Positions 11,718-44,204 of a stretch of 46,340 nt of DNA are shown one piece after another. Source of the stretch: Desulfobacteraceae bacterium. Its GTDB lineage: Bacteria > Desulfobacterota > Desulfobacteria > Desulfobacterales > JAABSP01. The number at the start of each line of letters is the position of its first letter. The first letter of the stretch is position 1. The notes under the pieces were generated by a model that was not told the DNA's origin, made no database searches, and saw only the letters and a list, made by a program, of their open reading frames with translations. Where the stretch lies: assembly GCA_011389855.1 (NCBI GenBank), contig JAABTM010000006.1, positions 1-46,340 of the forward strand. The letters run 5' to 3'. Position numbers and translations under genes: made by a program.

Positions 11718-13460
11718 ATGCAATACCCCCTCCCCGAATCCATCGGCAATCCGGACCTTCTCGCAGGCCGCGAAAAGGAATTCGCCCTGTTTAACAAATG
11801 GATATCCCGGATTCCAAAGCGGCTATCCAAATCAAGGGCCATCCTGGCCCGGCGCAAAAGCGGGAAGACATCGTTTTTGCAGCGCATTTTCAACCGATTG
11901 TGGAGCGAAAACGGAGAGGTGATCCCATTTTACATCAATATTTCGGAAAAGAAGATGTGGCTGCCGGATTTCGCCGAACAGTTTTATCGCGCGTTTGCGT
12001 CCCAGTACATTTCTTTCCTGGAACGAGACGAGGCAATGGTCAGAGAACCGCTGTCGCTTGATGCGATCAGGCAGTATGGGCTCGATAATGGCAACAACTC
12101 CCTTGTCAAGGATATCGACTTGATTCGCCATTATCGGGAACAGGGGAGTTTCGATCTGGCGTGGGACACCGCCAGCGGGGCCCCCCATCGCCACGCGGGC
12201 GTTTCCGGCGTCTCTTTTCTGGTCATGATCGACGAATTCCAGAACACCGGCGAATACATTTATATGGATGAGCACCACCAGCACGTTGACAACTCCATCC
12301 CCGGCACCTGGCACGACCTGTCCGAATCCAAACTCGCCCCCATGCTCGTTACCGGATCTTATGTCGGCTGGCTGATCAACATCATCGACACGTATCTGGA
12401 GGCCGGGCGGTTAAAACGGTACATGATGAATCCGTATCTTGAGCCGGAAGCCGGGCTCGAGGCGGTTTACCGCTACGCGGCCCATTACGAAGAATCCATC
12501 ACCAATGTAGCCGCCTTGCAAATCAACCGGTTGTGCATGTCCGACCCGTTTTTTATTTCCTGCGTGATCCAGAGCGATTTCGAAGGCAAGAACCTGACTT
12601 CGGAGGAGGGCGTGATCAACGCCGTCCATCACGAAATTACGGATCGGGCTTCCGAGATGTCCATGACCTGGGGCGAGTACATCGAATTGTCCTTAAAGCG
12701 GATCAACACCGTCAACAGCAAACACATTATGCTGCACTTGAGCAAGCACGCCGATCGGGAATGGACGCCGAGGGAATTGAAGCAAGAGCTAAGGCTTGAG
12801 ATCGATGAAAAGGAAATCAAAAAACTTTTGCAAAACATGGTCAAAGCCGATTTGATTCAGCGGGGCGGTTCGGACATCGATTACCGGGGTCTTACCGACG
12901 GCACGCTGGCGCTGATTCTCCGTCATCGGTTCGAAAAAGAGATCGCCACCTATCAGCCCAATGTGGAAACGACGGACCTGAAACAGGATTTTGGCGATGA
13001 AATCAAGCGTTTGAAAAAAGAAAAGCGGTCCCTGCGGGGGATGGTCAACCACCTCAGCGGCATGATGGCCGAATATATGTTATTCAACGAGTTCAGAAGC
13101 AAAAAGCGCTTCCGGCTTTCCCGGTATTTTGAAAACGTAAACCCTGACGTTGAATTGAACATCACCGATGTCGTCATGCGGACAAAATTTGAACGTCCCG
13201 ACGGCAAAGCGATGGAAATCGACGTGCTGGCCACATCGGCCCGCGCTTGGCTTCTGGCCGTGGAGGTAAAGAAAACCAAGGCGCCGGTGGGATTGCCGGC
13301 TGTCGAGGATTTCCTGGAAAAGGTCCGGGTTTTCGCCGACCTGCGGCCGGACAATGTTGTTCTGCCGGCGTTCTTTTCCGTGGGCGGTTTTACGGAGGAT
13401 GCCATGCGGTTTTGCGAGGAAAAGGGGATTGCGGTCGCCACTAGGATTGAGATATTTTGA
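11718..13460 (+). CDS. STAND-like ATPase fused to a PD-(D/E)XK nuclease-type domain
   Basis: This 580-residue protein resembles archaeal-type ATPases. A P-loop reads ARRKSGKTS (residues 44-52; the usual first glycine is alanine), and a Walker B segment reads FLVMIDEFQNT (near 168-178). A winged-helix-like region follows (about 344-385, EWTPRELKQELRLEI). The C-terminus contains EIDVLA, then AVEVKKTK (about 500-521), the D...ExK pattern of PD-(D/E)XK nucleases. Related proteins are usually uncharacterised and common in mobile regions. GGAGACC lies before the ATG. The gene is less GC-rich than the core block. A defence role is plausible from location only. Confidence 0.75.
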   Translation: MQYPLPESIGNPDLLAGREKEFALFNKWISRIPKRLSKSRAILARRKSGKTSFLQRIFNRLWSENGEVIPFYINISEKKMWLPDFAEQFYRAFASQYISFLERDEAMVREPLSLDAIRQYGLDNGNNSLVKDIDLIRHYREQGSFDLAWDTASGAPHRHAGVSGVSFLVMIDEFQNTGEYIYMDEHHQHVDNSIPGTWHDLSESKLAPMLVTGSYVGWLINIIDTYLEAGRLKRYMMNPYLEPEAGLEAVYRYAAHYEESITNVAALQINRLCMSDPFFISCVIQSDFEGKNLTSEEGVINAVHHEITDRASEMSMTWGEYIELSLKRINTVNSKHIMLHLSKHADREWTPRELKQELRLEIDEKEIKKLLQNMVKADLIQRGGSDIDYRGLTDGTLALILRHRFEKEIATYQPNVETTDLKQDFGDEIKRLKKEKRSLRGMVNHLSGMMAEYMLFNEFRSKKRFRLSRYFENVNPDVELNITDVVMRTKFERPDGKAMEIDVLATSARAWLLAVEVKKTKAPVGLPAVEDFLEKVRVFADLRPDNVVLPAFFSVGGFTEDAMRFCEEKGIAVATRIEIF

Positions 13461-13626
13461 CGGACCTATCCCTTTGCACCCGCCGTCTTTGTTGAGCATT
13501 TATCAGGAAATGGTCGTATCACCGGTCGATTTGCTGAAAAACCATGCTCTCAAAGTGATAAAAAGCGCGGTTCACTTGATAAACAACCAAAAGAAGTTAC
13601 AGTTCTTAGCGTGTATAATATGTCCT

Positions 13627-14598
13627 ATGCCACTATTTGACGCCTACATCTTCGCCGATTGGAGCGCCGCCAACAGCCCCGGACCCGGACGCCCGTCCGC
13701 CAACGCCGTATGGGTCGGCGAATGCCTCCCGCAAAAGGATCATCAACAGGAAACCTATCATCGAACCCGGCGCAACGGCGCTGACCATGTCGCCCATATC
13801 CTGGAAGACCATGTCAGTCACGGCCGCAGAGTTCTGGTGGGGTTCGATTTTTGTTACGGTTATCCCGCCGGTTTCGGCAAGGCGCTGGGGCTGCCGTCCG
13901 GTCCTGAATCCTGGTGGTGGATCTGGGCCCAACTGGCCGACAGAGGTCGGGACTCGGAAACCAATGTCAACAACCGGTTCCATGTCGCTGGAAAACTGAA
14001 CGGAATCGTGGGCGATGGTCGGCCCGGCCCGTTTTGGGGTTGCCCCGCGGGAAAGGACATTCCTAACTTACGGCCCCGGTCGCCGGGATTTCCCTTTCGC
14101 GCCGCGAACGGCGTCTCGCTGGAAAGGCTTCGCATCGTCGAAACCCGTCTGTCAGGAGTCCAGGAAACCTGGGGGCTTTATGGTCCCGGACGGGTCGGCG
14201 GCCAAACCCTGACAGGACTTCCCTGTGTTTATGGGCTGCGCAAAAGGCCGTTGTTCCGTCGCTGTAGCCGCGTCTGGCCGTTTGAAACCCGATTCACGGA
14301 AGTGCTTCCGGCTGATGAACGCCCATTCATCCTGCACGCTGAAGTCTGGCCCGGCGTCGTGGAAACGCGCTTCAAGGAACTGATAAGGGCAGCCCCCTCC
14401 CTGATCAGAGACAGGGCCCAAGTCAGGGCGCTTTGCCAATGGGCCTCCGAATTGGACGACCAAAACGCCCTCGGCCGGTTTTTCGATGCGCCGGAAGGCT
14501 TAACGTCCCAACAGCTTCGGGGTTGTATGGAGGAGGAAGGGTGGATTTTGGGGGCGGCATTAAATGATAGTATGCTTGCAGGGCAATATGTTTCATGA
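13627..14598 (+). CDS. Uncharacterised protein of a family often labelled CbiG
   Basis: The 323-residue protein carries the family landmarks YIFADWSAAN at the N-terminus, RVLVGFDFCYGYPAGF (about residue 75), NNRFHVAGKLN, PFWGCPAG and RVWPFETRF. Many databases name this family cobalamin biosynthesis CbiG, but there is no other cobalamin gene here and no CbiG motif I recognise, so the name is probably a carried-over error. Acidic residues after beta strands suggest an RNase H-like fold as in DUF429, an inference. I chose the ATG at 13627; upstream codons look non-coding. A TATAAT at 13614-13619 leaves almost no leader. The stop overlaps the next start (ATGA), so the gene is translationally coupled to the helicase. 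A fossil relative lies at about 19.9 kb. Confidence 0.65.
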   Translation: MPLFDAYIFADWSAANSPGPGRPSANAVWVGECLPQKDHQQETYHRTRRNGADHVAHILEDHVSHGRRVLVGFDFCYGYPAGFGKALGLPSGPESWWWIWAQLADRGRDSETNVNNRFHVAGKLNGIVGDGRPGPFWGCPAGKDIPNLRPRSPGFPFRAANGVSLERLRIVETRLSGVQETWGLYGPGRVGGQTLTGLPCVYGLRKRPLFRRCSRVWPFETRFTEVLPADERPFILHAEVWPGVVETRFKELIRAAPSLIRDRAQVRALCQWASELDDQNALGRFFDAPEGLTSQQLRGCMEEEGWILGAALNDSMLAGQYVS

Positions 14599-17500
14599 AT
14601 AAAAAACAGAAAAAGATCGCGTTGAAGGCTCTCCAAAACTTGCGTTTGCGCCTTCTGGATCTCACAGCCCGGAATCGTCTGATTAATTTCCGTCATACAA
14701 AAACAGGAAGTTTGCGCATTATCGATGCGTTGCCGGATCAGTTGGTTGCAACATTGCTGTCTGAAACTGAAATGCGATTTCTGCCAGTCTCAGAGCCAAC
14801 CCGCGAGGAACTGGTTAATTCGGGTCATATTGAAATTGACGAAGACACGGGGCAGGAGATTTCTTTGCAGAAAGACCCCTCTGCTGAGGAATGGGCAAAG
14901 CAATTGGGACTTAACACTTCCTATGAGGTTCCGTCGCCTGAAACCGGGACAACAGGCGTTCAACATGCGCCCGCCGCAATGCAAACATTGCTCTACCCTT
15001 ATGAATTGGAAAGCCGGCTCAAAAGTCTGACAAGGGTTTCTGAATCCGCTATCCAGGAAATGGGGGCCAATATTCTGTACATGGGTTTCGGATTTTTAGA
15101 GTGGTTTGAAAATGCCAGTGACAATTCCCGCATTGCGCCATTGTTTTTAGTGCCGACACGTCTAAAGAAAGGGCGGTTGAATCCACAAACCAGAACCTAT
15201 GAATACGCCTTAAAATACTCCGGCGAAGACATCATTGCCAACCTTTCTTTACGGGAAAAGCTCCGGGCTGATTTTGCCATGGCTTTGCCGGCGTTAGATG
15301 AGAGTACAAATCCTGAAGCCTATTTTGAAGAGGTGGTGGAATTGATTAAGGCTAACCAGCCGCGCTGGCGATTGCGTCGCTTCATCACGCTTACATTGCT
15401 GAATTTCAGCAAGCTGCTGATGTACCTTGATCTTGATCCCTCTCATTGGCCGAAGGATGCAAATATTGTCGATCATTCGTTAGTCGGGCGTTTTCTAATC
15501 GGTTGCGACGCAGACCAAAATCAAGGGGAGCCCAACGGCAGTTTTGAGTTTTGGGAAGAACATTCCATTGACGATCTGGAGGATGTCCACGCGAAGTACC
15601 CCTTAATTTATGATGCCGATAGCTCCCAGCATAGTGCTCTAATCGACGCAGTGGATGGAAAGGATTTGGTAATTGAAGGCCCGCCGGGGACGGGAAAATC
15701 ACAAAGCATTACAAACCTGATCGCCGCGGCCATGGCCCGGGGTAAAAAAGTGCTTTTTGTCGCCGAAAAGCTGGCGGCCTTGCAGGTGGTGCGCCGTCGA
15801 TTCGATGCCGCTGGTCTGGGACAATTCTGCCTGGAATTGCATAGTCACAAATCTCAAAAGCGGAAGATGCTGGATGAGATCGAGGCTCGTATGAACAATC
15901 ACGGGCGTTTCCGAATGCCAAAAGACATTGAACTTGATATCGTCCGTTATGAAGAGCTGAAAAAAAGTTTGAAAGATTATGTGGAGCGAATCAATCAGCC
16001 CTGGAAAAATACCGGGCAAACATTGCATGACATCTTTATGGCAGCCGTTCGCTATCGCAAGGAAATCGGCGCCAATCCGGAGGTGCTGCATCCAGAAAAC
16101 TATGACGGCGATAGTTTGGGTCGCGACGTCCAGCGGCGCATGGCGGACCAGCTCGATGCATTTTGTAAAATCTATCAGGCGGTAACAGATCAGCTCGATG
16201 ATGCTTCAACATTACAACAGCACCCTTGGCATGGTGTACGCAATTCCGATCTTCAAATATTTGATTCGGATCGGGTTCAGGCAGCATTGAACAATTGGCA
16301 ACAATCTCTCCAGCTTTTGAGTGAAGAAAGATCAAAGATAGCGGAAGTGTTGGATTGCGGACGGAGTGCCATCGCGGATAGCTTGAATGAAATTTCGTTG
16401 TTGTTGAATGATCTTGAAGGACTGCCATCTCTCAAAGGCAATGAAATACTGGACCTGTTGCCGGCGCTGCAAGGCGCCGTTCTGGACGAGGCGCATCAAT
16501 GCATAACACTTTTTGAAGAAATCCAGTCGCTTTACGCCGATCTCCAAATGCAAGTCGGGGTAGAGGTGTTGCAGGATCTTTCCGTTGTTGACAGCTTTCT
16601 TGATGGAAGTGAACAATTGGCCCAGCTTGTAGGTCCGATGGTCGAGTTGGGTGCGTTAGCAGAGACCATAAACCGGCTGACGGCAATGCGGGACCAACTG
16701 ACAGACCTGGAAGAACCGCTTCAAACAATTCAGGATATTGTGGGAGAAAACGCTGCCGCACACCTATTGCCTACTGAAGCAGGGCTTTTAGAGTTCAGGG
16801 TTTTCGTTGATCTGGTTTCTGGTCTTCATCCATCTTATTGGAAACTTCGCGATGAGCGGTTCGACAATGAGGAGATGGATGAATTGCTGCCCAGCCTTCG
16901 GAATGAACTCAACCGGCTTCATGCTTTGCGTGATGAATTAAGCAGCGTGTTTCGGCTTGATTCTTTACCTGAGCATAGTGAATTGAGGCGAATCAGGGAA
17001 GACATCGATGCCGGAGGGTTTTTTCGCTGGTGCAATAGCAGTTGGCGGTCTGCTCGCAAAGAGGCGCTCAATCTCGCAGAGGATAAATCGATACGATTGG
17101 CCAGACTGCGTTCTCTGATAGAAAAAGCAGAGGATTTTTTGGCAATGCGCCGGAAATTTGAGGAGAATAATCACTATAAAGAAGTATTCGGCGATTATAT
17201 GAAAGGGCTTGAAACAGATCTTAAAACCCTGGAATCATTGCGTGAGTGGTATAAAAGTGTGCGGCGGCAATATGGTTTGGGATTTGGACCAAAAGTTGCT
17301 CTTGGTAACGCCATTATCGAATTGCCGACGGAAATTGCCAGAGCGGTGCGTTCGTTGTCCGAACAAGGCGTTCAAAAACAATTGACGGATTTGCTGGATG
17401 ATCTCGAAACGCTCAAAAAAATATTTTCACCGGTTTCGGAACTGACCAATATCACAACACTGTTAGCGGGCCAGGAAGGCATGATTTCACGTCTCCTTAC

Positions 17501-19742
17501 ATCAGTGAATGATGCGTTGTTATCTTGCAGGCCCCTGGCCATTGACAAAGCGATGTCAATGGCGGATCTGGCTGATCGCATAGAACGCCTCGACTTGCTG
17601 AAAAAAGCTGTCGGGAAATGGGAAGCCGCTGATTATAACAACAGACTATTCCAGGGTCGCGTTTATTTGACGCTTGGAGTTTACGCCGACAATGACAATT
17701 TTTTATCCGTGATGCGAAATACGCTGAAAGTTGCGGGTTATACTGATCGGCAATTGCATAACGACCAAGTGCGGCAATGCATTTACGCCCGCCCCGAATC
17801 CCCCACCTTTGACAATTTAAAGGACGTTTCATCGGATTTGGGAAAACAAATGGAAATTCAAGAGACCAGATGCAAAGATTTTTGCCGATTGGTAGCGTTG
17901 GATCTCGACGACTGGATGAAGGCGTCGGGCGATCGGCTGGAAAGCCTTATCGAGAGGAACAACCGCGCGCTTCAAAGCAGCGAGAGCTTGCAGAATTGGC
18001 TTGATTATGCACGGGTGCGGGATCAAACCGAAACCATGGGGCTTGGTAAATTGGCAACAGCGATTGAACAAGCGGATATTAAAATCGATCAATCTGATAC
18101 GGCGTTCAAGGCGGGACTTTTTGACCTTCTGTCTCGCGAGATACTGCGAGAACAGCCGGAATTGGGCCGGTTTTCCGGCCGGAATCAGGAAGCCCTTCAA
18201 AAACAGTACAGGCAATATGACAACCAGCTAAAAAAATTACAGTGTGAGAAAATTGCCTGGCAGATCGACCAAGTGAGCATTCCGAAGGGGGCGTGCCATG
18301 GCCCTGTGAGCAACTACTCAGAGCTTTGCCTGATTGAGCATGAATGCAGCAAGAAAAAAAGACATATCCCTATACGACAACTTTTGCATAGAGCGGGGGG
18401 CGCGTTGGCAGCTTTGAAACCCTGTTTTATGATGGGGCCGATGTCGGTGGCCCAATATCTGGCGCCCGGCAACATTGAATTTGACCTGATCGTTATGGAT
18501 GAGGCTTCGCAGATCAAGCCGCAGGACGCGCTGGGGTCAATTGCGCGAGGCGAACAGTTGGTGGTTGTCGGAGATCCCAAGCAGTTGCCGCCTACCAGCT
18601 TTTTTGAGCGTGTTATTGATGATAACGAAGAAGATCCGACAACAATCGAAGAATCAGAAAGTATTTTAGACGCAACATTGCCGATGTTTCCAATCAGACG
18701 ACTTCGTTGGCATTATCGATCCCAACACGAAAGCCTTATTGCGTTTTCAAATCACTCATTTTATGATGGAAATCTAGTGCTGTTTCCATCGCCTTATAAA
18801 AAAACAGACGCCTATGGCGTAAGATATGAAAGGATACAGAACGGCTGCTTCGTCAACAGACGGAATAGAGAGGAGGCGAAGGTTATCGCAGAAGCTGTTA
18901 GAGAGCATTTCAGGCTTCGGACAAAAGAATCTTTGGGCGTAGCGGCAATGAGCGCAGAACAGCGTTTGCAAATTGAAAGCGCAATTGAAATATTAGCTAA
19001 AGAAGACAGCATGTTTCAGGAATGGCTGGAAGAAGACGGACGAAGGGACGACCCCTTGTTCATTAAAAATCTGGAAAATGTTCAAGGCGATGAGCGAGAT
19101 GTGATTTTTATTTCGATGACGTATGGGCCAAAAGAACCAAATGGGAAAGTTTTTCAGCGTTTTGGTCCAATAAACTCTGAAGTGGGCTGGCGTCGTCTGA
19201 ATGTGCTTTTTACTCGCGCGAAGAAACGAATGCATGTTTTTAGCTCTATGGGATCGGAGGACATTGTTGCGGACTCGTCAACAAAGCGCGGCGTAAAGGC
19301 TCTTAGAGATTTTTTGGCATATTGCGAAACTGGCATTTTACATACAAACGAACAAGAGACGGCGCGCCTTCCGGATAGTGATTTTGAAATCGCGGTAATG
19401 GCGGCGCTGCAAGACAAAGGCTTTGAATGCCTTTCCCAGGTCGGCGTTGCGGGATTTTTTATTGATATAGCGGTTCTTGATCCTGGCAATCCAGGACGCT
19501 ATCTGATGGGCATAGAATGTGACGGCGCCACCTATCATTCAGCAAAATCAACGCGAGACCGAGATCGACTACGGCAGAAAATCCTGGAGCGGCTTGGATG
19601 GCGAATTCGCCGGATATGGTCGACTGACTGGTTCAAAAATCCTCACGCGGAGCTTCAGCCAATTATCCGGGAATTGAACTCGTTAAAAACCAAAAGAGTG
19701 AAAAAAGTTGAGAAGAAAATAGAAGCAAAACACAAAAGATAG
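14595..19742 (+). CDS. DUF4011-type SF1 helicase with Vsr-like (MTES_1575) nuclease domain
   Basis: This 1715-residue protein starts with a DUF4011-like region (LRLRLLDLTARNRLINFRH). It has a Upf1-type SF1 motor split by a long helical insert: Walker A GPPGTGKS (about 363), DEAS (about 1301), GDPKQLPPTSF (about 1325) and RRLNVLFTRAKKRM (about 1530). The C-terminal nuclease-like domain (about 1596-1695) contains DIAVLD, LMGIECDGATYHS, RDRDRLRQKILERLGW and RIWSTDWF, the MTES_1575 Vsr-related fold. Single large proteins of this kind have been reported as phage-defence genes; I recall the name Hhe but cannot check it. GC content is clearly below the core genes. The normal C-terminal tail appears out of frame just downstream. 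Confidence 0.88.
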   Translation: MNKKQKKIALKALQNLRLRLLDLTARNRLINFRHTKTGSLRIIDALPDQLVATLLSETEMRFLPVSEPTREELVNSGHIEIDEDTGQEISLQKDPSAEEWAKQLGLNTSYEVPSPETGTTGVQHAPAAMQTLLYPYELESRLKSLTRVSESAIQEMGANILYMGFGFLEWFENASDNSRIAPLFLVPTRLKKGRLNPQTRTYEYALKYSGEDIIANLSLREKLRADFAMALPALDESTNPEAYFEEVVELIKANQPRWRLRRFITLTLLNFSKLLMYLDLDPSHWPKDANIVDHSLVGRFLIGCDADQNQGEPNGSFEFWEEHSIDDLEDVHAKYPLIYDADSSQHSALIDAVDGKDLVIEGPPGTGKSQSITNLIAAAMARGKKVLFVAEKLAALQVVRRRFDAAGLGQFCLELHSHKSQKRKMLDEIEARMNNHGRFRMPKDIELDIVRYEELKKSLKDYVERINQPWKNTGQTLHDIFMAAVRYRKEIGANPEVLHPENYDGDSLGRDVQRRMADQLDAFCKIYQAVTDQLDDASTLQQHPWHGVRNSDLQIFDSDRVQAALNNWQQSLQLLSEERSKIAEVLDCGRSAIADSLNEISLLLNDLEGLPSLKGNEILDLLPALQGAVLDEAHQCITLFEEIQSLYADLQMQVGVEVLQDLSVVDSFLDGSEQLAQLVGPMVELGALAETINRLTAMRDQLTDLEEPLQTIQDIVGENAAAHLLPTEAGLLEFRVFVDLVSGLHPSYWKLRDERFDNEEMDELLPSLRNELNRLHALRDELSSVFRLDSLPEHSELRRIREDIDAGGFFRWCNSSWRSARKEALNLAEDKSIRLARLRSLIEKAEDFLAMRRKFEENNHYKEVFGDYMKGLETDLKTLESLREWYKSVRRQYGLGFGPKVALGNAIIELPTEIARAVRSLSEQGVQKQLTDLLDDLETLKKIFSPVSELTNITTLLAGQEGMISRLLTSVNDALLSCRPLAIDKAMSMADLADRIERLDLLKKAVGKWEAADYNNRLFQGRVYLTLGVYADNDNFLSVMRNTLKVAGYTDRQLHNDQVRQCIYARPESPTFDNLKDVSSDLGKQMEIQETRCKDFCRLVALDLDDWMKASGDRLESLIERNNRALQSSESLQNWLDYARVRDQTETMGLGKLATAIEQADIKIDQSDTAFKAGLFDLLSREILREQPELGRFSGRNQEALQKQYRQYDNQLKKLQCEKIAWQIDQVSIPKGACHGPVSNYSELCLIEHECSKKKRHIPIRQLLHRAGGALAALKPCFMMGPMSVAQYLAPGNIEFDLIVMDEASQIKPQDALGSIARGEQLVVVGDPKQLPPTSFFERVIDDNEEDPTTIEESESILDATLPMFPIRRLRWHYRSQHESLIAFSNHSFYDGNLVLFPSPYKKTDAYGVRYERIQNGCFVNRRNREEAKVIAEAVREHFRLRTKESLGVAAMSAEQRLQIESAIEILAKEDSMFQEWLEEDGRRDDPLFIKNLENVQGDERDVIFISMTYGPKEPNGKVFQRFGPINSEVGWRRLNVLFTRAKKRMHVFSSMGSEDIVADSSTKRGVKALRDFLAYCETGILHTNEQETARLPDSDFEIAVMAALQDKGFECLSQVGVAGFFIDIAVLDPGNPGRYLMGIECDGATYHSAKSTRDRDRLRQKILERLGWRIRRIWSTDWFKNPHAELQPIIRELNSLKTKRVKKVEKKIEAKHKR

Positions 19743-19926
19743 CCAACGTCTCTTGCGTCCCGCAATGCTTGAAGCTTTTCTGGAACACCGTCCTTTGAGC
19801 AAAACAGAGTTCCTTCAATTTATTCCAGCCTATCTGAGGCAGGCTACCCATTCCAATGAGGGCCGCTTTCTTGAGGATATTTTTGGAATTATTAACGATA
19901 GCGAAGAAAAAGAAATCGGAAAATGA
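19723..19926 (+). pseudogene. Out-of-frame C-terminal tail of the helicase
   Basis: In the +1 frame relative to the helicase, an open stretch overlaps its last codons and reads SQRLLRPAMLEAFLEHRP, then SKTEFLQFIPAYLRQAT and FLEDIFGII, about 55 residues. LRPxML...EF...IP...LR is, from memory, the usual end of large DUF4011/DUF3320 helicases. The in-frame end of the present helicase is instead a lysine-rich run (KTKRVKKVEKKIEAKHKR). A one-base indel or a small deletion near 19.7 kb would explain both. Confidence 0.55.
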
Positions 19927-20078
19927 CGTTAAAAACCGGTTCCGCGCCACCGGAGATCTGAACGGGATTGTGGCCAACGGTCGGATCGGATTTCTGGACC
20001 CGCCAGGCGGGAAAGGATATACCCAACTTGCGGCCATGGGCGCCGAGATTCCCTTTTTGTACGCGAAAATGAGCAGCG
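19916..20078 (+). pseudogene. Fragment of a CbiG-labelled paralogue
   Basis: The frame encodes NDVKNRFRATGDLNGIV, then GRIGF, GGKGYTQLAAMGAEIPF. This aligns with NNRFHVAGKLNGIVGDGRPG and the following CPAGKDIPNLR...FPFRAAN of the intact gene at 13627-14598, and the DNA is similar too (ACCGGTTCC, CTGAACGG). Only about 50 codons of the middle of the gene remain and both ends are missing. Confidence 0.65.
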
Positions 20079-20081
20079 CGA

Positions 20082-20268
20082 CTATGATTCCCGCGCCTCC
20101 CTCCCCGCCGTCTCCGCATCCACCCTTCCCGTCCAAATCGGCGACAGCAGGTACCCGAAAAGGTACAGAAAGGCCACGTGCCCGAAATAGGGCGTGAAGA
20201 CGAAGGCCACGATGAGCAGGGCGCTGGCCCGTCCGAACCAGGGTTTGCGGCTCATGTATCGGCCTAAG
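20082..20268 (-). pseudogene. Duplicated 3' end of the CDP-alcohol phosphatidyltransferase gene
   Basis: On the minus strand this encodes MSRKPWFGRASALLIVAF and continues through LLSPIWTGRVDAETAGREARES to a stop. The last membrane helix is the same as in the intact gene at 22556-24004. Bases 20161-20243 are identical to 22620-22702; both flanks have diverged. This copy ends in a different C-terminus, possibly the original one. The interval 20269-20360 shows nothing recognisable. Confidence 0.85.
20161..20243. repeat. Direct repeat, left copy (83 bp, identical to 22620-22702)
   Basis: The 83 bases match base for base between the fragment here and the 3' end of the intact transferase gene about 2.46 kb away, in the same orientation. 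The two copies bracket the PARIS-like pair. Confidence 0.95.
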
Positions 20269-20360: not shown

Positions 20361-20562
20361 GAATATCCCAACAAGGCGAATTCAACGGCGCCGCTCGCCA
20401 TTTGCCGCGCGGGAGTAAACTCCCACGCTATTTTATGATGTCCCTACAGGACATTTTTTGCAATTTTAGTCCTGTAGGGACGACACATAGTAGCGTGGGA
20501 GTTCACTCCCGCGCGGTCGGGCGGGATCAAATTTGGTATATTGATTCCAGCAATTCACCTAA
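20361..20562. repeat. Border repeat, copy A (interrupted by a 104-bp insertion)
   Basis: Starting at AATATCCCAACAA and ending at GCAATTCACCTAA this matches 43756-43854 with only a few changes, except for an extra 104 bases in the middle. It overlaps the stop codon of the DUF4435-type gene. Both copies lie at the edge of accessory DNA. Confidence 0.9.
20405..20516. mobile_element. Small inverted-repeat (MITE/REP-like) element
   Basis: The ends are inverted repeats of 26 bases with one mismatch; the outer 8 bases are CCGCGCGG, itself a palindrome, and the inner part contains CTCCCACGCTA with TAGCGTGGGAG. An internal hairpin pairs GTCCCTACAGGAC with GTCCTGTAGGGAC. It has no coding capacity. The related repeat at 43756-43854 has a single CCGCGCGG and no insert, so this is a filled site compared with an empty one. 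Confidence 0.85.
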
Positions 20563-21449
20563 GAAGTTATTCTTTCATGGATCAATTGCCTCAACTCTAT
20601 AAAATCCCGTGGCTGAACGGCGTCATTTTGTTGAAGAAGATCTTTCGCAACATCATTGATCTTTTCCTTGATGTCGGTCACAACGGTTCCATCCGCCGTC
20701 TGAACGCGAAATGATGTCGAATTGATCAATTGGGACACTATTTTTTTACCCTGGATCAAGCTCACCCACTGGCCGGCGCCGAAATCAAGCGTGTTCTGGC
20801 CGCCGGTCATTCTTTCGAGGCATTCGCGTAATCGGCGCGCCACTTCGGCTGCCGACACAGTCCGAGCGACCGTATTCCGGTGATCTTCAAATTCTCTGGC
20901 GGCTTGCAATCTGCTCAAAGCCGCTTCCGCGTCCGGGAACTCCTGGGGATTGGAAAATATTTCAATCCACTTCCTTTTCAATTCTTCGCGAATGGAGATG
21001 ATTGCGCAATTGGCGGCGTCCAGGAAAAGTCTGGCGTTTGCAAACCGCAAAACCTGTTCCTTGAGTTCATCCCGCGCAACGCGACAAAAGCGGGAATGAG
21101 ACAAATACTCGGGTTCCAAAAAATAGTTTTCGATTTCCCTGCGTCGCCACACGAGAAGATTATGGGTGCCGGGGTCGGGAAAATTTCTCCAGCAATCCTG
21201 GATAAAGGTCTCATCGTGGTGGTCGCGATCCACCAGAAAATAGTAATTGGGGTGATAGACGTAGAGCGCTTCCGCAACGCTTTTCACTGAATATGAAGGA
21301 CCAAGCGGCTCCACCCGAATGTCTGGGGCCAACAAATGGCTCAAGACATTCGGGTCGATTGCGTTCCTGTCTTTTCCTTCAACAAAAAGAACATGCCGTC
21401 CTCCGAAACGGACTTCATCGGGGCGAATTCCAGTCCTCGGTCTTGTCAT
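20559..21449 (-). CDS. DUF4435/TOPRIM-like effector of a PARIS-like pair (AriB-like)
   Basis: The 296-residue protein has an early HVLFVEGKDRNAID, then YYFLVDRDHHD (about residue 90) and WRRREIENYFLEPEYL (about 125). These are the Glu, Asp-x-Asp and EIENYxLxP landmarks of DUF4435, the TOPRIM-like family that includes AriB of PARIS. In PARIS the AAA ATPase AriA holds AriB inactive until a phage anti-restriction protein is sensed, after which AriB cleaves host tRNA. Both acidic motifs are present here, so the protein looks catalytically intact. It follows the ATPase gene with a one-base TAATG overlap. An OLD-like anti-phage pair not responding to the PARIS trigger remains possible. Confidence 0.72.
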   Translation of the reverse strand: MTRPRTGIRPDEVRFGGRHVLFVEGKDRNAIDPNVLSHLLAPDIRVEPLGPSYSVKSVAEALYVYHPNYYFLVDRDHHDETFIQDCWRNFPDPGTHNLLVWRRREIENYFLEPEYLSHSRFCRVARDELKEQVLRFANARLFLDAANCAIISIREELKRKWIEIFSNPQEFPDAEAALSRLQAAREFEDHRNTVARTVSAAEVARRLRECLERMTGGQNTLDFGAGQWVSLIQGKKIVSQLINSTSFRVQTADGTVVTDIKEKINDVAKDLLQQNDAVQPRDFIELRQLIHERITS

Positions 21450-22528
21450 TAATTCCCCTCCTGATCGTTCACCAAGAGAATTCGCCGGTCTTTGTTGACC
21501 GCGTCCATGACATCCTCGGAATGGGTGGCCAGGATGTATTGATTGCCAGGAACCAGGCTCGCAAGTTTTTTTACAAATTTACCATGCCATTGGGCGTTCA
21601 GATGAAGCTCCGGCTCGTCAATCAATACAACCGATGGTCTGTCTTTTGTGTGAAGCCAAATCATAAACAACGTGGAAATGATTTCCTTTTGGCCGGAACT
21701 CAGGCCATCGAAAGAGAAAGAACTTTCTCCATTGATTGGCGTGATGCGAAAATCAACCGTATTGTCGGATGAAGGGCGCAGTTTGCCGATTGTGCCGCCC
21801 GCGTAAAACGCGACAAGTTCGTTGAGCTTGTCCATGCCTTTGTTCGCGTCCTGATCTTCAACAGACTCAAACAAATCGCCCTTTTGCATCAAGGATCGCA
21901 AAATTTTAAGTTTAAATTCGCTCATTGCAAACTCAGACCACGCGGCCCTCGGCAATCTGTTTTTTTGAAAATTTCGATCCACTATCATGCCGAGTTGCGG
22001 ATTGCCTTCCTGGATTTTTCGATAACTATGAAACAAAAGAAAAAAATGTCCAACGGCAGGGTTGGGATTGAATCCACATATTGTTTTTATAAGCTCAAAT
22101 TCAGCAGCTTTGTTTGATTTGTTCGGATAGTCGCTCTTGATCGGGAAATCGCCGGATATTGAAATTTTCTCATTCCGATTTATTTGGAGTTGCACGGTTG
22201 CCCGATCATCGCCAATGTCGATGTCGCCAGAAATTGTAGCAGTTTCAGCCCCGGCTTTGATAAGCAAATCAGGCACATCCACAATGAGATGTTGATGGCG
22301 CAAATTAAAAACGGATCGGGCGGCTCCAAAACTGAGCGCCATCAGCAATAAGCTGCAACACTCCAATACGGAAGTCTTCCCAACGCCATTTTCACTTCCC
22401 AGGGCGAAAATGTCTGGATCATTGGGCATCCGGGGTTTTGGAAAATTCAATTCAAATTTATCAATGCCTTTGTAGTTCTCTACAAACACTCGCCTGATTT
22501 TGACAGCCCCGTTTCGAGCGTTTCCCAT
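21449..22528 (-). CDS. AAA15-type ATPase of a PARIS-like pair (AriA-like)
   Basis: This 359-residue ABC/SMC-type ATPase has Walker A GSENGVGKTSV (about residue 43), signature LSSGQKEI (about 272), Walker B VVLIDEPELHL (about 298) and H-loop ATHSED (about 338). This is the usual layout of AriA and other AAA15/21 sensors. A strong AAGGAGAG site precedes the ATG, and the gene begins only 27 bases after the stop of the co-oriented phosphatidyltransferase, so it may be transcribed by read-through from it. It is somewhat shorter than the E. coli AriA I remember. GC content is below that of its right-hand neighbour, supporting recent arrival. Confidence 0.75.
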   Translation of the reverse strand: MGNARNGAVKIRRVFVENYKGIDKFELNFPKPRMPNDPDIFALGSENGVGKTSVLECCSLLLMALSFGAARSVFNLRHQHLIVDVPDLLIKAGAETATISGDIDIGDDRATVQLQINRNEKISISGDFPIKSDYPNKSNKAAEFELIKTICGFNPNPAVGHFFLLFHSYRKIQEGNPQLGMIVDRNFQKNRLPRAAWSEFAMSEFKLKILRSLMQKGDLFESVEDQDANKGMDKLNELVAFYAGGTIGKLRPSSDNTVDFRITPINGESSFSFDGLSSGQKEIISTLFMIWLHTKDRPSVVLIDEPELHLNAQWHGKFVKKLASLVPGNQYILATHSEDVMDAVNKDRRILLVNDQEGN

Positions 22529-22555: not shown

Positions 22556-24004
22556 TTAATCCATTTCAGAACACCGAATACCCCGCCCCGTCCACAATGG
22601 CGACAGCAAATAACCAAAGAGGTACAGAAAGGCCACGTGCCCGAAATAGGGCGTGAAGACGAAGGCCACGATGAGCAGGGCGCTGGCCCGTCCGAACCAG
22701 GGGCGGCGGCTCATGTAGCGGCCCAGGTGGAGGTACCGGATCGGGTAGAAGTTCATGAGGACGGCGGCGGCGATCATGAGCCAGAAGCAGAAGAGCGCCC
22801 AGAACCGGGCCCAGTCGGGGGCGGCCGCCGCCTGACTGAAGATAATCAGGGGCGAGGTTGCCAGCAGGGCGGCCGCCGGGGTGGGGAGCCCCTTGAAAAA
22901 TCCCGGAATGGGCGATGTGTCGAGGGTGAAATAGATCAGCCGGGCGATGCCGGCCAGGGTGTAGAGAACGGCGACCAGGGCCGCGGGCAGCCCGGCGGAC
23001 GCCGTTGGTCCCTGGAGGGTGAGGTAAAAAATCCAGGCGGGGACGATGCAGAAGCTGACGGCGTCGGCGATGTCGTCCATGATAGAGCCCACGTTGATGC
23101 GGCCCCCTTCGACGGCGCCCGGCAGCGGCTCGGTGAGCCCCAGACGCCGGGCCACGGCCCCATCCAGTTTATCGAACATGGCCGCGCCGATGAGGAGGAG
23201 GTATGCCTCCCGGATCCGGCCCTGGTAGGCGAAAAAGACCGCCAGAAGCCCCATGACGGCGTTCATCACCGTCAGGGCGTTGGGGAAGACGGAAAGTATC
23301 CGCCGGCGGAGCATCTCGTCTCCCAGGCAGAGTTCGTCCAGGCAGGGGGCGCCGTACTTCCGGCAGTACCGGGCGATGGAGCCGAAATTGATGATCAGGA
23401 AGATGATCTCGATAAAGAAGAGCACCCGGATGGGCAGGTTCCCCAGCCAGGAGAAGGCGTAGTAGACAAAGGACGTGGGCCCCTCCGGGACGAAAAAGGC
23501 GTGGGCGTAGAGCAGCGCCCCCACCGGCGCGGCCACCGCGGTCCGCAGCCGGGTGAATTCGCTGGGCTCCGGCTCGGGCCCCCTGGGGCCGGCGAACCCG
23601 CGGATGAAGTGGGCGAAATTGTCCCGGAACAGGACCACGATGCAGATGATCAGCACGAAAATGGTGTGGAGCATCTGGAGCCGGCTCGGCGCCGGGGTGT
23701 GGGACAGCCGCCACATCATGCCCACCGCCGCCAGTGGGAAGATGGTGGCGAAGACCACCTTGTCCATGATCCGGTCGGCCAGATGGGCCAGGGTGGGATG
23801 GGGGGTGAACCGGGCCGCGAACCAGCCGTCCACGATGTCGAAGCTCATGGAGATGATCAGCAGGATCACCCCGACGGTGTAGACCTCCGGGCTGCGGGTC
23901 CACATGACGGCAAGGGCGCAAAGCAGGCCCCCGAAGACCAGGGGCAGCCGCCCGTAAACCAGGACGGCGGTGAATTTCTGGGGGATTTGAAGATGTCTTG
24001 GCAT
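22556..24004 (-). CDS. Two-domain CDP-alcohol phosphatidyltransferase (PssA-like)
   Basis: The 482-residue multi-pass protein has two transferase-like halves. The second (about residues 235-450) has DGAVARRLGL and, after an insert, GSIMDDIADAVSF, matching DG-x2-AR...G-x3-D-x3-D. The first half (about 50-90) reads DGWFAAR...ADRIMDK and lacks the usual AR spacing and glycine, so it may be inactive. Phosphatidylserine synthase-type activity is the best guess; the alcohol acceptor cannot be read from sequence. The last about 50 codons are duplicated at 20.1-20.27 kb, and the C-terminal residues (GIRCSEMD) differ from that copy, so its end may have been replaced when the neighbouring cassette arrived. 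Confidence 0.8.
   Translation of the reverse strand: MPRHLQIPQKFTAVLVYGRLPLVFGGLLCALAVMWTRSPEVYTVGVILLIISMSFDIVDGWFAARFTPHPTLAHLADRIMDKVVFATIFPLAAVGMMWRLSHTPAPSRLQMLHTIFVLIICIVVLFRDNFAHFIRGFAGPRGPEPEPSEFTRLRTAVAAPVGALLYAHAFFVPEGPTSFVYYAFSWLGNLPIRVLFFIEIIFLIINFGSIARYCRKYGAPCLDELCLGDEMLRRRILSVFPNALTVMNAVMGLLAVFFAYQGRIREAYLLLIGAAMFDKLDGAVARRLGLTEPLPGAVEGGRINVGSIMDDIADAVSFCIVPAWIFYLTLQGPTASAGLPAALVAVLYTLAGIARLIYFTLDTSPIPGFFKGLPTPAAALLATSPLIIFSQAAAAPDWARFWALFCFWLMIAAAVLMNFYPIRYLHLGRYMSRRPWFGRASALLIVAFVFTPYFGHVAFLYLFGYLLSPLWTGRGIRCSEMD
22620..22702. repeat. Direct repeat, right copy (inside the transferase gene)
   Basis: Identical to 20161-20243. It codes for the last membrane helix of the transferase on the minus strand. 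Confidence 0.95.
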
Positions 24005-43757: not shown

Positions 43758-43854
43758 AATATCCCAACAAAGCGAATTCAACGGCGCCGCTCGCCATTTG
43801 CCGCGCGGTCGGGCGGGATCAAATTTGGTATATTGATTCCAGCAATTCACCTAA
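43756..43854. repeat. Border repeat, copy B (uninterrupted)
   Basis: These 99 bases match 20361-20562 apart from a few changes and the 104-bp insert there. They hold a single CCGCGCGG at 43801-43808, where the other copy carries the small element. Confidence 0.92.
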
Positions 43855-44204
43855 TAAGGTTAATCATTACCCAAAAAGAGGGATTATTTTTGTTTTAACG
43901 CCGGCGTTTTGTTGACATTCTCAGACGTGTCGATCATGCTTGATTTCCATTTGTCGTTCAACATTAACATTTGCGCAATACCCGACTTTGCCGGAAAAAG
44001 GCGACAGTCGGATAAAATCAATATTCTGCATGTTGACCGACAAAATCTTGCCAAGCAATGAAATGGAATGGATAATAAAATAAAGAGGTTGGCAGAAAAG
44101 AATTTGACGTATAGCGGTAAGTCTGGTTTGTGGGAGGAATGCTTTTATTTCGAGTGTTGGCCGGAAACCGTATAATCACTGGTTAGACGCACGAAAGGAA
44201 ACGA
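43855..44204 (+). promoter_or_regulatory. AT-rich gap with a TATAAT box and an attI/attC-type core site
   Basis: No reading frame of note is present; GC content drops sharply from the preceding gene. Near the right end are TATAAT (44171-44176) and GTTAGAC (44182-44188), which fits the GTTRRRY core at which integron cassettes join. I could not find the matching RYYYAAC and inverted arm of a full attC upstream, so this may be an attI-like or degenerate site. A ribosome site (AAAGGAA) precedes the next ATG. Confidence 0.45.

What the first reader, a model, noticed from the sequence alone, without database searches (positions are those of the whole stretch)
13627..19742. Coupled pair: CbiG-labelled protein plus DUF4011-helicase-Vsr-like protein
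The two genes overlap by ATGA in a low-GC defence-rich stretch, and a fossil of the first family lies on the other side of the helicase. The repeated association suggests the small protein is a partner of the helicase-nuclease rather than a cobalamin enzyme.
Basis: inference. Interest (0 to 1): 0.65.

Follow-up and report, generated by a model that had tools for sequence, protein, structure and literature searches.

The report
Lone Hhe defence gene with neighbour
A known anti-phage helicase-nuclease gene (Hhe) here overlaps a small gene with a predicted nuclease-like fold, but the two were found together only in this bacterial genus, so the small protein is more likely a lineage-specific neighbour or optional helper than an established partner.

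Summary
The pair is real. Gene A is 13627-14598; gene B is 14595-19742, overlapping it by ATGA. Gene B belongs to the known defence family Hhe (NCBIfam 2360 bits, cut-off 2000), but about 137 nt are deleted near its 3' end, out of frame, costing roughly its last 110 residues. Gene A matches no Pfam family, CbiG included; the label most likely comes from relatives fused to CbiC. Others are fused to MoeA, hydantoinase or an AAA ATPase. A confident model (pLDDT 94.8) looks RNase H/RuvC-like, with invariant acidic residues.

A sister species has the same pair, overlap and downstream fragment. The pair is far more alike between the two species (dS 0.09-0.14) than four neighbouring genes (0.52-0.72), so it was exchanged as a block. 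No association was found beyond the genus: 1 of 80 nearest gene-A loci has Hhe nearby (the sister), and the nearest Hhe outside the genus (67% identical) has no gene A. The fossil covers about 55 residues fused to the end of hhe and looks like an insertion scar, not a second association. Hhe most likely works alone; gene A is a passenger or optional nuclease.

The parts
13627..14598 (+). gene A ('CbiG-labelled'), 323 aa, predicted RNase H/RuvC-like fold; invariant D11, D74, E239, D262 (and E304)
   Evidence: ORF; no Pfam, PADLOC or PHROG family; NCBIfam PRK14495 below cut-off; model pLDDT 94.8; alignment A2
14595..14598 (+). ATGA overlap of gene A stop and gene B start; also present in the sister species
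14595..19742 (+). gene B, Hhe (DUF4011 - SF1 helicase - Vsr/REase-type), 1715 aa, C-terminally truncated
   Evidence: NF042953 2360 bits, cut-off 2000; PADLOC Hhe; Pfam domains
19738..19926 (+). out-of-frame remnant of the Hhe C-terminus after a ~137-nt deletion
   Evidence: (positions 1737-1797 of NF042953)
19935..20110 (+). fossil: internal fragment of gene A (about residues 107-166), shared with the sister species

Best explanation
Gene B is an Hhe anti-phage protein that most likely acts alone: by analogy with the named family, the helicase core would sense or translocate on foreign or replicating DNA and the C-terminal Vsr/REase-type domain would cut it (inferred; not tested here). Gene A is an independent RNase H/RuvC-like protein, probably a metal-dependent nuclease, of a promiscuous family that elsewhere stands alone or is fused or next to metabolic enzymes. 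In this genus an hhe gene was joined to the 3' end of a resident or incoming gene A by recombination; the same event left a second, partial gene A at the end of hhe, which has decayed into the fossil. The joined pair then spread between at least two species as a block. Shown: gene identity, overlap, shared fossil, block exchange, purifying selection on gene A. Inferred: the order of events, the nuclease activity, and that Hhe does not need gene A.
For: Hhe membership. The nearest Hhe outside the genus (G025, 67% identical) is preceded by a different 497-aa ORF, not gene A; Hhe in G278 and G318 is preceded by an ATPase and a 297-aa ORF; a Klebsiella and a Vibrio plasmid Hhe have no gene A beside them. 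Gene A without Hhe: 79 of the 80 nearest loci, 0 of 6 plasmid gene-A records with Hhe as the annotated neighbour in the 3 looked at. In 340 order members, full-length gene A occurs in 3 (2 in this genus) and Hhe at E<=1e-200 in 3 (2 in this genus). Different base composition of the two genes, 0.60 and 0.477. Gene A runs 12 residues past the usual end of the family, so the ATGA may be the first stop met after loss of the native one.
Against: Pair, overlap and gene A reading frame are kept in two species; gene A is under purifying selection (41.5 nonsynonymous and 30.5 synonymous changes over 735 and 234 sites, p = 0.0008); both genes have low dS (0.14, 0.09) compared with pgsA 0.52, rlmN 0.72, ubiG 0.59 and the cytochrome-like gene 0.58, as a functional unit would. 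Selection could also act through gene A's own separate function.
Confidence: 0.6

Rival explanations
1. Genuine two-gene variant of Hhe: gene A is a co-translated accessory nuclease that works with the Hhe helicase-nuclease, for example by trimming or resolving the strands that the helicase exposes, or by widening the range of phages stopped.
For: ATGA overlap kept in both species; block exchange of both genes; purifying selection on gene A with its acidic residues intact; nuclease-like fold. A distant 256-aa relative overlaps an Mrr restriction endonuclease gene in another Desulfobacterota genome.
Against: No recurrence outside the genus; upstream genes of Hhe differ between lineages; gene A evolves faster than hhe (dN/dS 0.41 against 0.16); different base composition.
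Confidence: 0.27
2. Both genes are decaying passengers: the window copy of Hhe has lost its C-terminus and is non-functional, and gene A has no role here.
For: ~137-nt out-of-frame deletion in hhe; fossil next to it; a 142-nt direct repeat beside it shows recent rearrangement.
Against: The Vsr/REase-type domain is complete (residues 1597-1694) and the rest of hhe is under strong constraint between the species (dN/dS 0.16); the sister copy is full length at 1824 aa.
Confidence: 0.08
3. Gene A is a cobalamin or molybdenum cofactor enzyme that happens to lie here.
For: Relatives are fused to CbiC or MoeA or lie in mobA-mobB-X-glp operons.
Against: No Pfam hit for any cobalamin domain; stand-alone members in mixed contexts; the model resembles RNase H/RuvC-like proteins.
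Confidence: 0.05

Closest known systems
Hhe anti-phage protein (NCBIfam NF042953; PADLOC Hhe)
   Same: Full domain order DUF4011 - SF1 helicase - Vsr/REase-type, score over the curated cut-off; the sister copy covers profile positions 1-1797.
   Different: Window copy lacks about the last 110 residues; preceded by an overlapping gene A, which Hhe elsewhere lacks in the loci examined.
PRK14495 C-terminal 'unknown domain' (MobB fusion, NCBIfam NF011066) and the CbiC/MoeA-fused relatives
   Same: Gene A aligns over residues 4-313 (E 2e-39) and shares all invariant residues of alignment A2.
   Different: Gene A has no MobB, CbiC or MoeA part and scores 136 bits against a cut-off of 596.
DUF429 (PF04250), RNase H-like clade D (PMC3985635, passages read)
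   Same: Same order of motifs: D; D-x-P with G and P after it; E-x-x-P; D. Same fold class by model.
   Different: Pfam DUF429 does not match gene A; profile-profile comparison is not significant (probability 5.2 and 2.2).

Membership tests
Hhe | score over the curated NF042953 cut-off (2000 bits) | tested here: met
   2360.4 bits
Hhe | DUF4011, SF1 helicase and Vsr/REase-type domains in one chain | tested here: met
   PF13195, PF13086/PF13087, PF18741
Hhe | complete C-terminus | tested here: not met
   match ends at profile position 1696-1698; positions 1737-1797 lie in another frame
Hhe | protects against phage | not testable with these tools
   needs a plaque assay
CbiG (cobalamin biosynthesis) | a CbiG Pfam domain | tested here: not met
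   0 Pfam families at E<=0.01
DUF429 | match to PF04250 | tested here: not met
   0 Pfam families; genome search with PF04250 did not match the window genome
DUF429 | profile-profile similarity | tested here: not met
   probability 5.2 and 2.2
RNase H-like superfamily | RNase H fold | tested here: inconclusive
   strand-strand-strand-helix-strand start; best VIA rows are phage RuvC Z 7.2 (rmsd 3.5, 129 aligned), Tex, Spt6, terminase nuclease, IS621; all Z under 8; Foldseek none at E<=0.001
RNase H-like superfamily | conserved acidic residues on strand 1, strand 4 and the last helix | tested here: met
   D11, D74, E239, D262 invariant in 56 sequences; same positions kept in the 256-aa subfamily
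two-gene defence system | same gene pair recurs in unrelated lineages | tested here: not met

The most novel reading that the evidence does not exclude
A two-gene form of Hhe in which a co-translated RNase H/RuvC-like nuclease from a family known only from metabolic contexts has been recruited as an accessory subunit and spreads with the helicase between species.
Probability: 0.25. Interest if true: 0.5.

Novelty: new member of a known kind. Interest (0 to 1): 0.3.

Why it matters
It corrects a misleading cobalamin label, gives a widespread unnamed domain a likely RNase H/RuvC-type fold, and shows how a recombination scar beside a defence gene can imitate a conserved partnership. If gene A does help Hhe, it would be a rare glimpse of an accessory gene being recruited to a stand-alone defence protein.

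Tried and rejected
Rejected: fossil as second association (it is joined to the end of hhe, covers only residues ~107-166, and shows ~78% identity between the species where gene A shows 98.7%). Rejected: gene A as plain DUF429. A first idea that relatives L082 and L056 are pseudogenes was dropped for L082: its stop is the natural end; L056 has one frameshift. Searches that gave nothing: gene A in 50,697 phage records, gene A in solved structures by sequence (best E 0.43, ribosomal L5, chance), PHROGs for gene A, PADLOC for gene A and for two AAA-fused relatives, pair-junction pattern in viral contigs. Literature: DUF4011 occurs in 3 held papers (one read by passages), 'Hhe system' and similar terms in 5, none read (search listing only); PMC9122126 passages hold no Hhe or DUF4011. 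I recall that Hhe was named in a 2020 screen of defence genes, but did not see that paper. No complex of the two proteins could be modelled; Hhe exceeds the length limit.

Full report
What is there. Gene A (13627-14598, 323 aa) and gene B (14595-19742, 1715 aa) overlap by ATGA. Gene B passes the NCBIfam cut-off for Hhe (2360 against 2000 bits) and is PADLOC Hhe, with DUF4011, SF1 helicase and a Vsr/REase-type MTES_1575 domain. It is truncated: the Hhe profile match stops at position 1696-1698 and positions 1737-1797 reappear in another frame; about 137 nt are missing relative to the sister species.

Gene A. It has no Pfam, PADLOC or PHROG family and matches NCBIfam PRK14495, a MobB/unknown-domain fusion, below its cut-off. 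Its relatives are fused to CbiC (L065, L059), MoeA (L069), hydantoinase A (L097) and an AAA_16 ATPase (L062) in the 8 proteins scanned, and lie in molybdenum cofactor operons in the 3 plasmid records viewed. That explains a cobalamin label, which I did not see in any record; the link to the label is inference. A model from 56 aligned sequences has pLDDT 94.8 and pTM 0.92. Its best structural matches are RuvC, Tex/Spt6 YqgF-like, terminase nuclease, IS621 and RuvX entries with Z 7.2 or less; Foldseek gives nothing at E<=0.001. Z under 8 alone would be weak; the strand order and the invariant D11, D74, E239 and D262 agree with it. The motif order resembles DUF429, which one paper places in RNase H-like clade D (PMC3985635, passages only), but Pfam and profile comparison do not support membership.

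The sister species. The 580-aa ATPase gene and the PARIS-like pair of the window are absent there. Window 13568-19736 is 96.2% identical to it, the flanks 79-88%. dS is 0.143 for gene A and 0.089 for hhe, against pgsA 0.516, rlmN 0.724, ubiG 0.588 and a cytochrome-like gene 0.584. So the pair was exchanged as a block after the species split. Gene A is under purifying selection (p = 0.0008), but more loosely than hhe (dN/dS 0.41 and 0.16).

The fossil. In the sister it matches residues 108-161 of gene A at 59% and begins within the last codons of hhe; the window copy matches the same part with frame breaks. It is about 78% identical between the species in its core (window 19985-20123), like neutral flanking DNA. 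A simple history is that an hhe carrying a piece of gene A recombined into a gene A, leaving one full and one partial copy, the latter then eroded. This is inference. A similar scar flanks the next insertion: 20123-20264 repeats the pgsA tail at 22582-22723.

Hhe is found in 1 of 80 loci, the sister itself; both flanks reach 5.5 kb in 51 of 80, at least one side 2 kb in 78 of 80. In 49 of those genomes (50 of 80 given), 6 carry an Hhe-like gene at E<=1e-50, none over the cut-off, and none of those lies within the held flanks of gene A. Gene A is in 2 of 395 phylum genomes (one weak) and, over its full length, in 3 of 340 order genomes (8 of 340 with partial matches). Two viral contigs carry a 36% relative beside phage tail genes, without Hhe.

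Survey from Hhe. In 395 phylum genomes 19 have a match at E<=1e-100 and 4 are over the cut-off; among 55 relatives 3 are over it. Together that is five genomes: G000, G001, G025, G278, G318. In 62 fetched Hhe or Hhe-like loci, several overlapping and some partial so that the upstream gene is out of view, gene A is found only in those of G000 and G001. The nearest Hhe outside the genus, G025 at 67%, follows another ORF. In G278 and G318 the upstream genes are an ATPase with PADLOC NsnB/HEC-03B-like matches and a 297-aa ORF. Plasmid Hhe genes of Klebsiella and Vibrio (two regions viewed of 458 records with a match) have no gene A.

Judgement. Observation confirmed; the cobalamin doubt is right; the partnership rests on one genus. 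Hhe acting alone with a lineage-specific neighbour is the most likely reading (0.6), an accessory nuclease the main rival (0.27).

Noticed in passing
window 20559-22528 (-): PARIS-like pair: AriA/PtuA-type ATPase and AriB-like DUF4435 protein, absent in the sister species, flanked by a 142-nt direct repeat of the pgsA tail (20123-20264 and 22582-22723, 90%).
   Followed up: partly
window 20405-20516 and 43758-43862: Palindrome with 48-nt arms whose outer parts recur at 43758-43862 (96-98%): a MITE-like or REP-like element.
   Followed up: no
window 11718-13460 (+): 580-aa ATPase-like gene with no family match over any cut-off, absent in the sister species.
   Followed up: partly
L168, L169 (G278, G318): Hhe preceded by an AAA ATPase (NsnB/HEC-03B-like in PADLOC) and a 297-304-aa ORF without a family.
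   Followed up: partly
L171-L175: A 256-269-aa distant subfamily of gene A in Desulfobacterota with the same acidic residues; the L175 copy overlaps an Mrr-type restriction endonuclease gene.
   Followed up: partly
L136, L137: A gene A relative next to tail tape-measure and baseplate genes in two IMG/VR viral contigs.
   Followed up: partly
L062, L064: Gene A domain fused to an AAA_16 ATPase in two gammaproteobacterial genomes (L062 scanned; neither matches PADLOC).
   Followed up: partly
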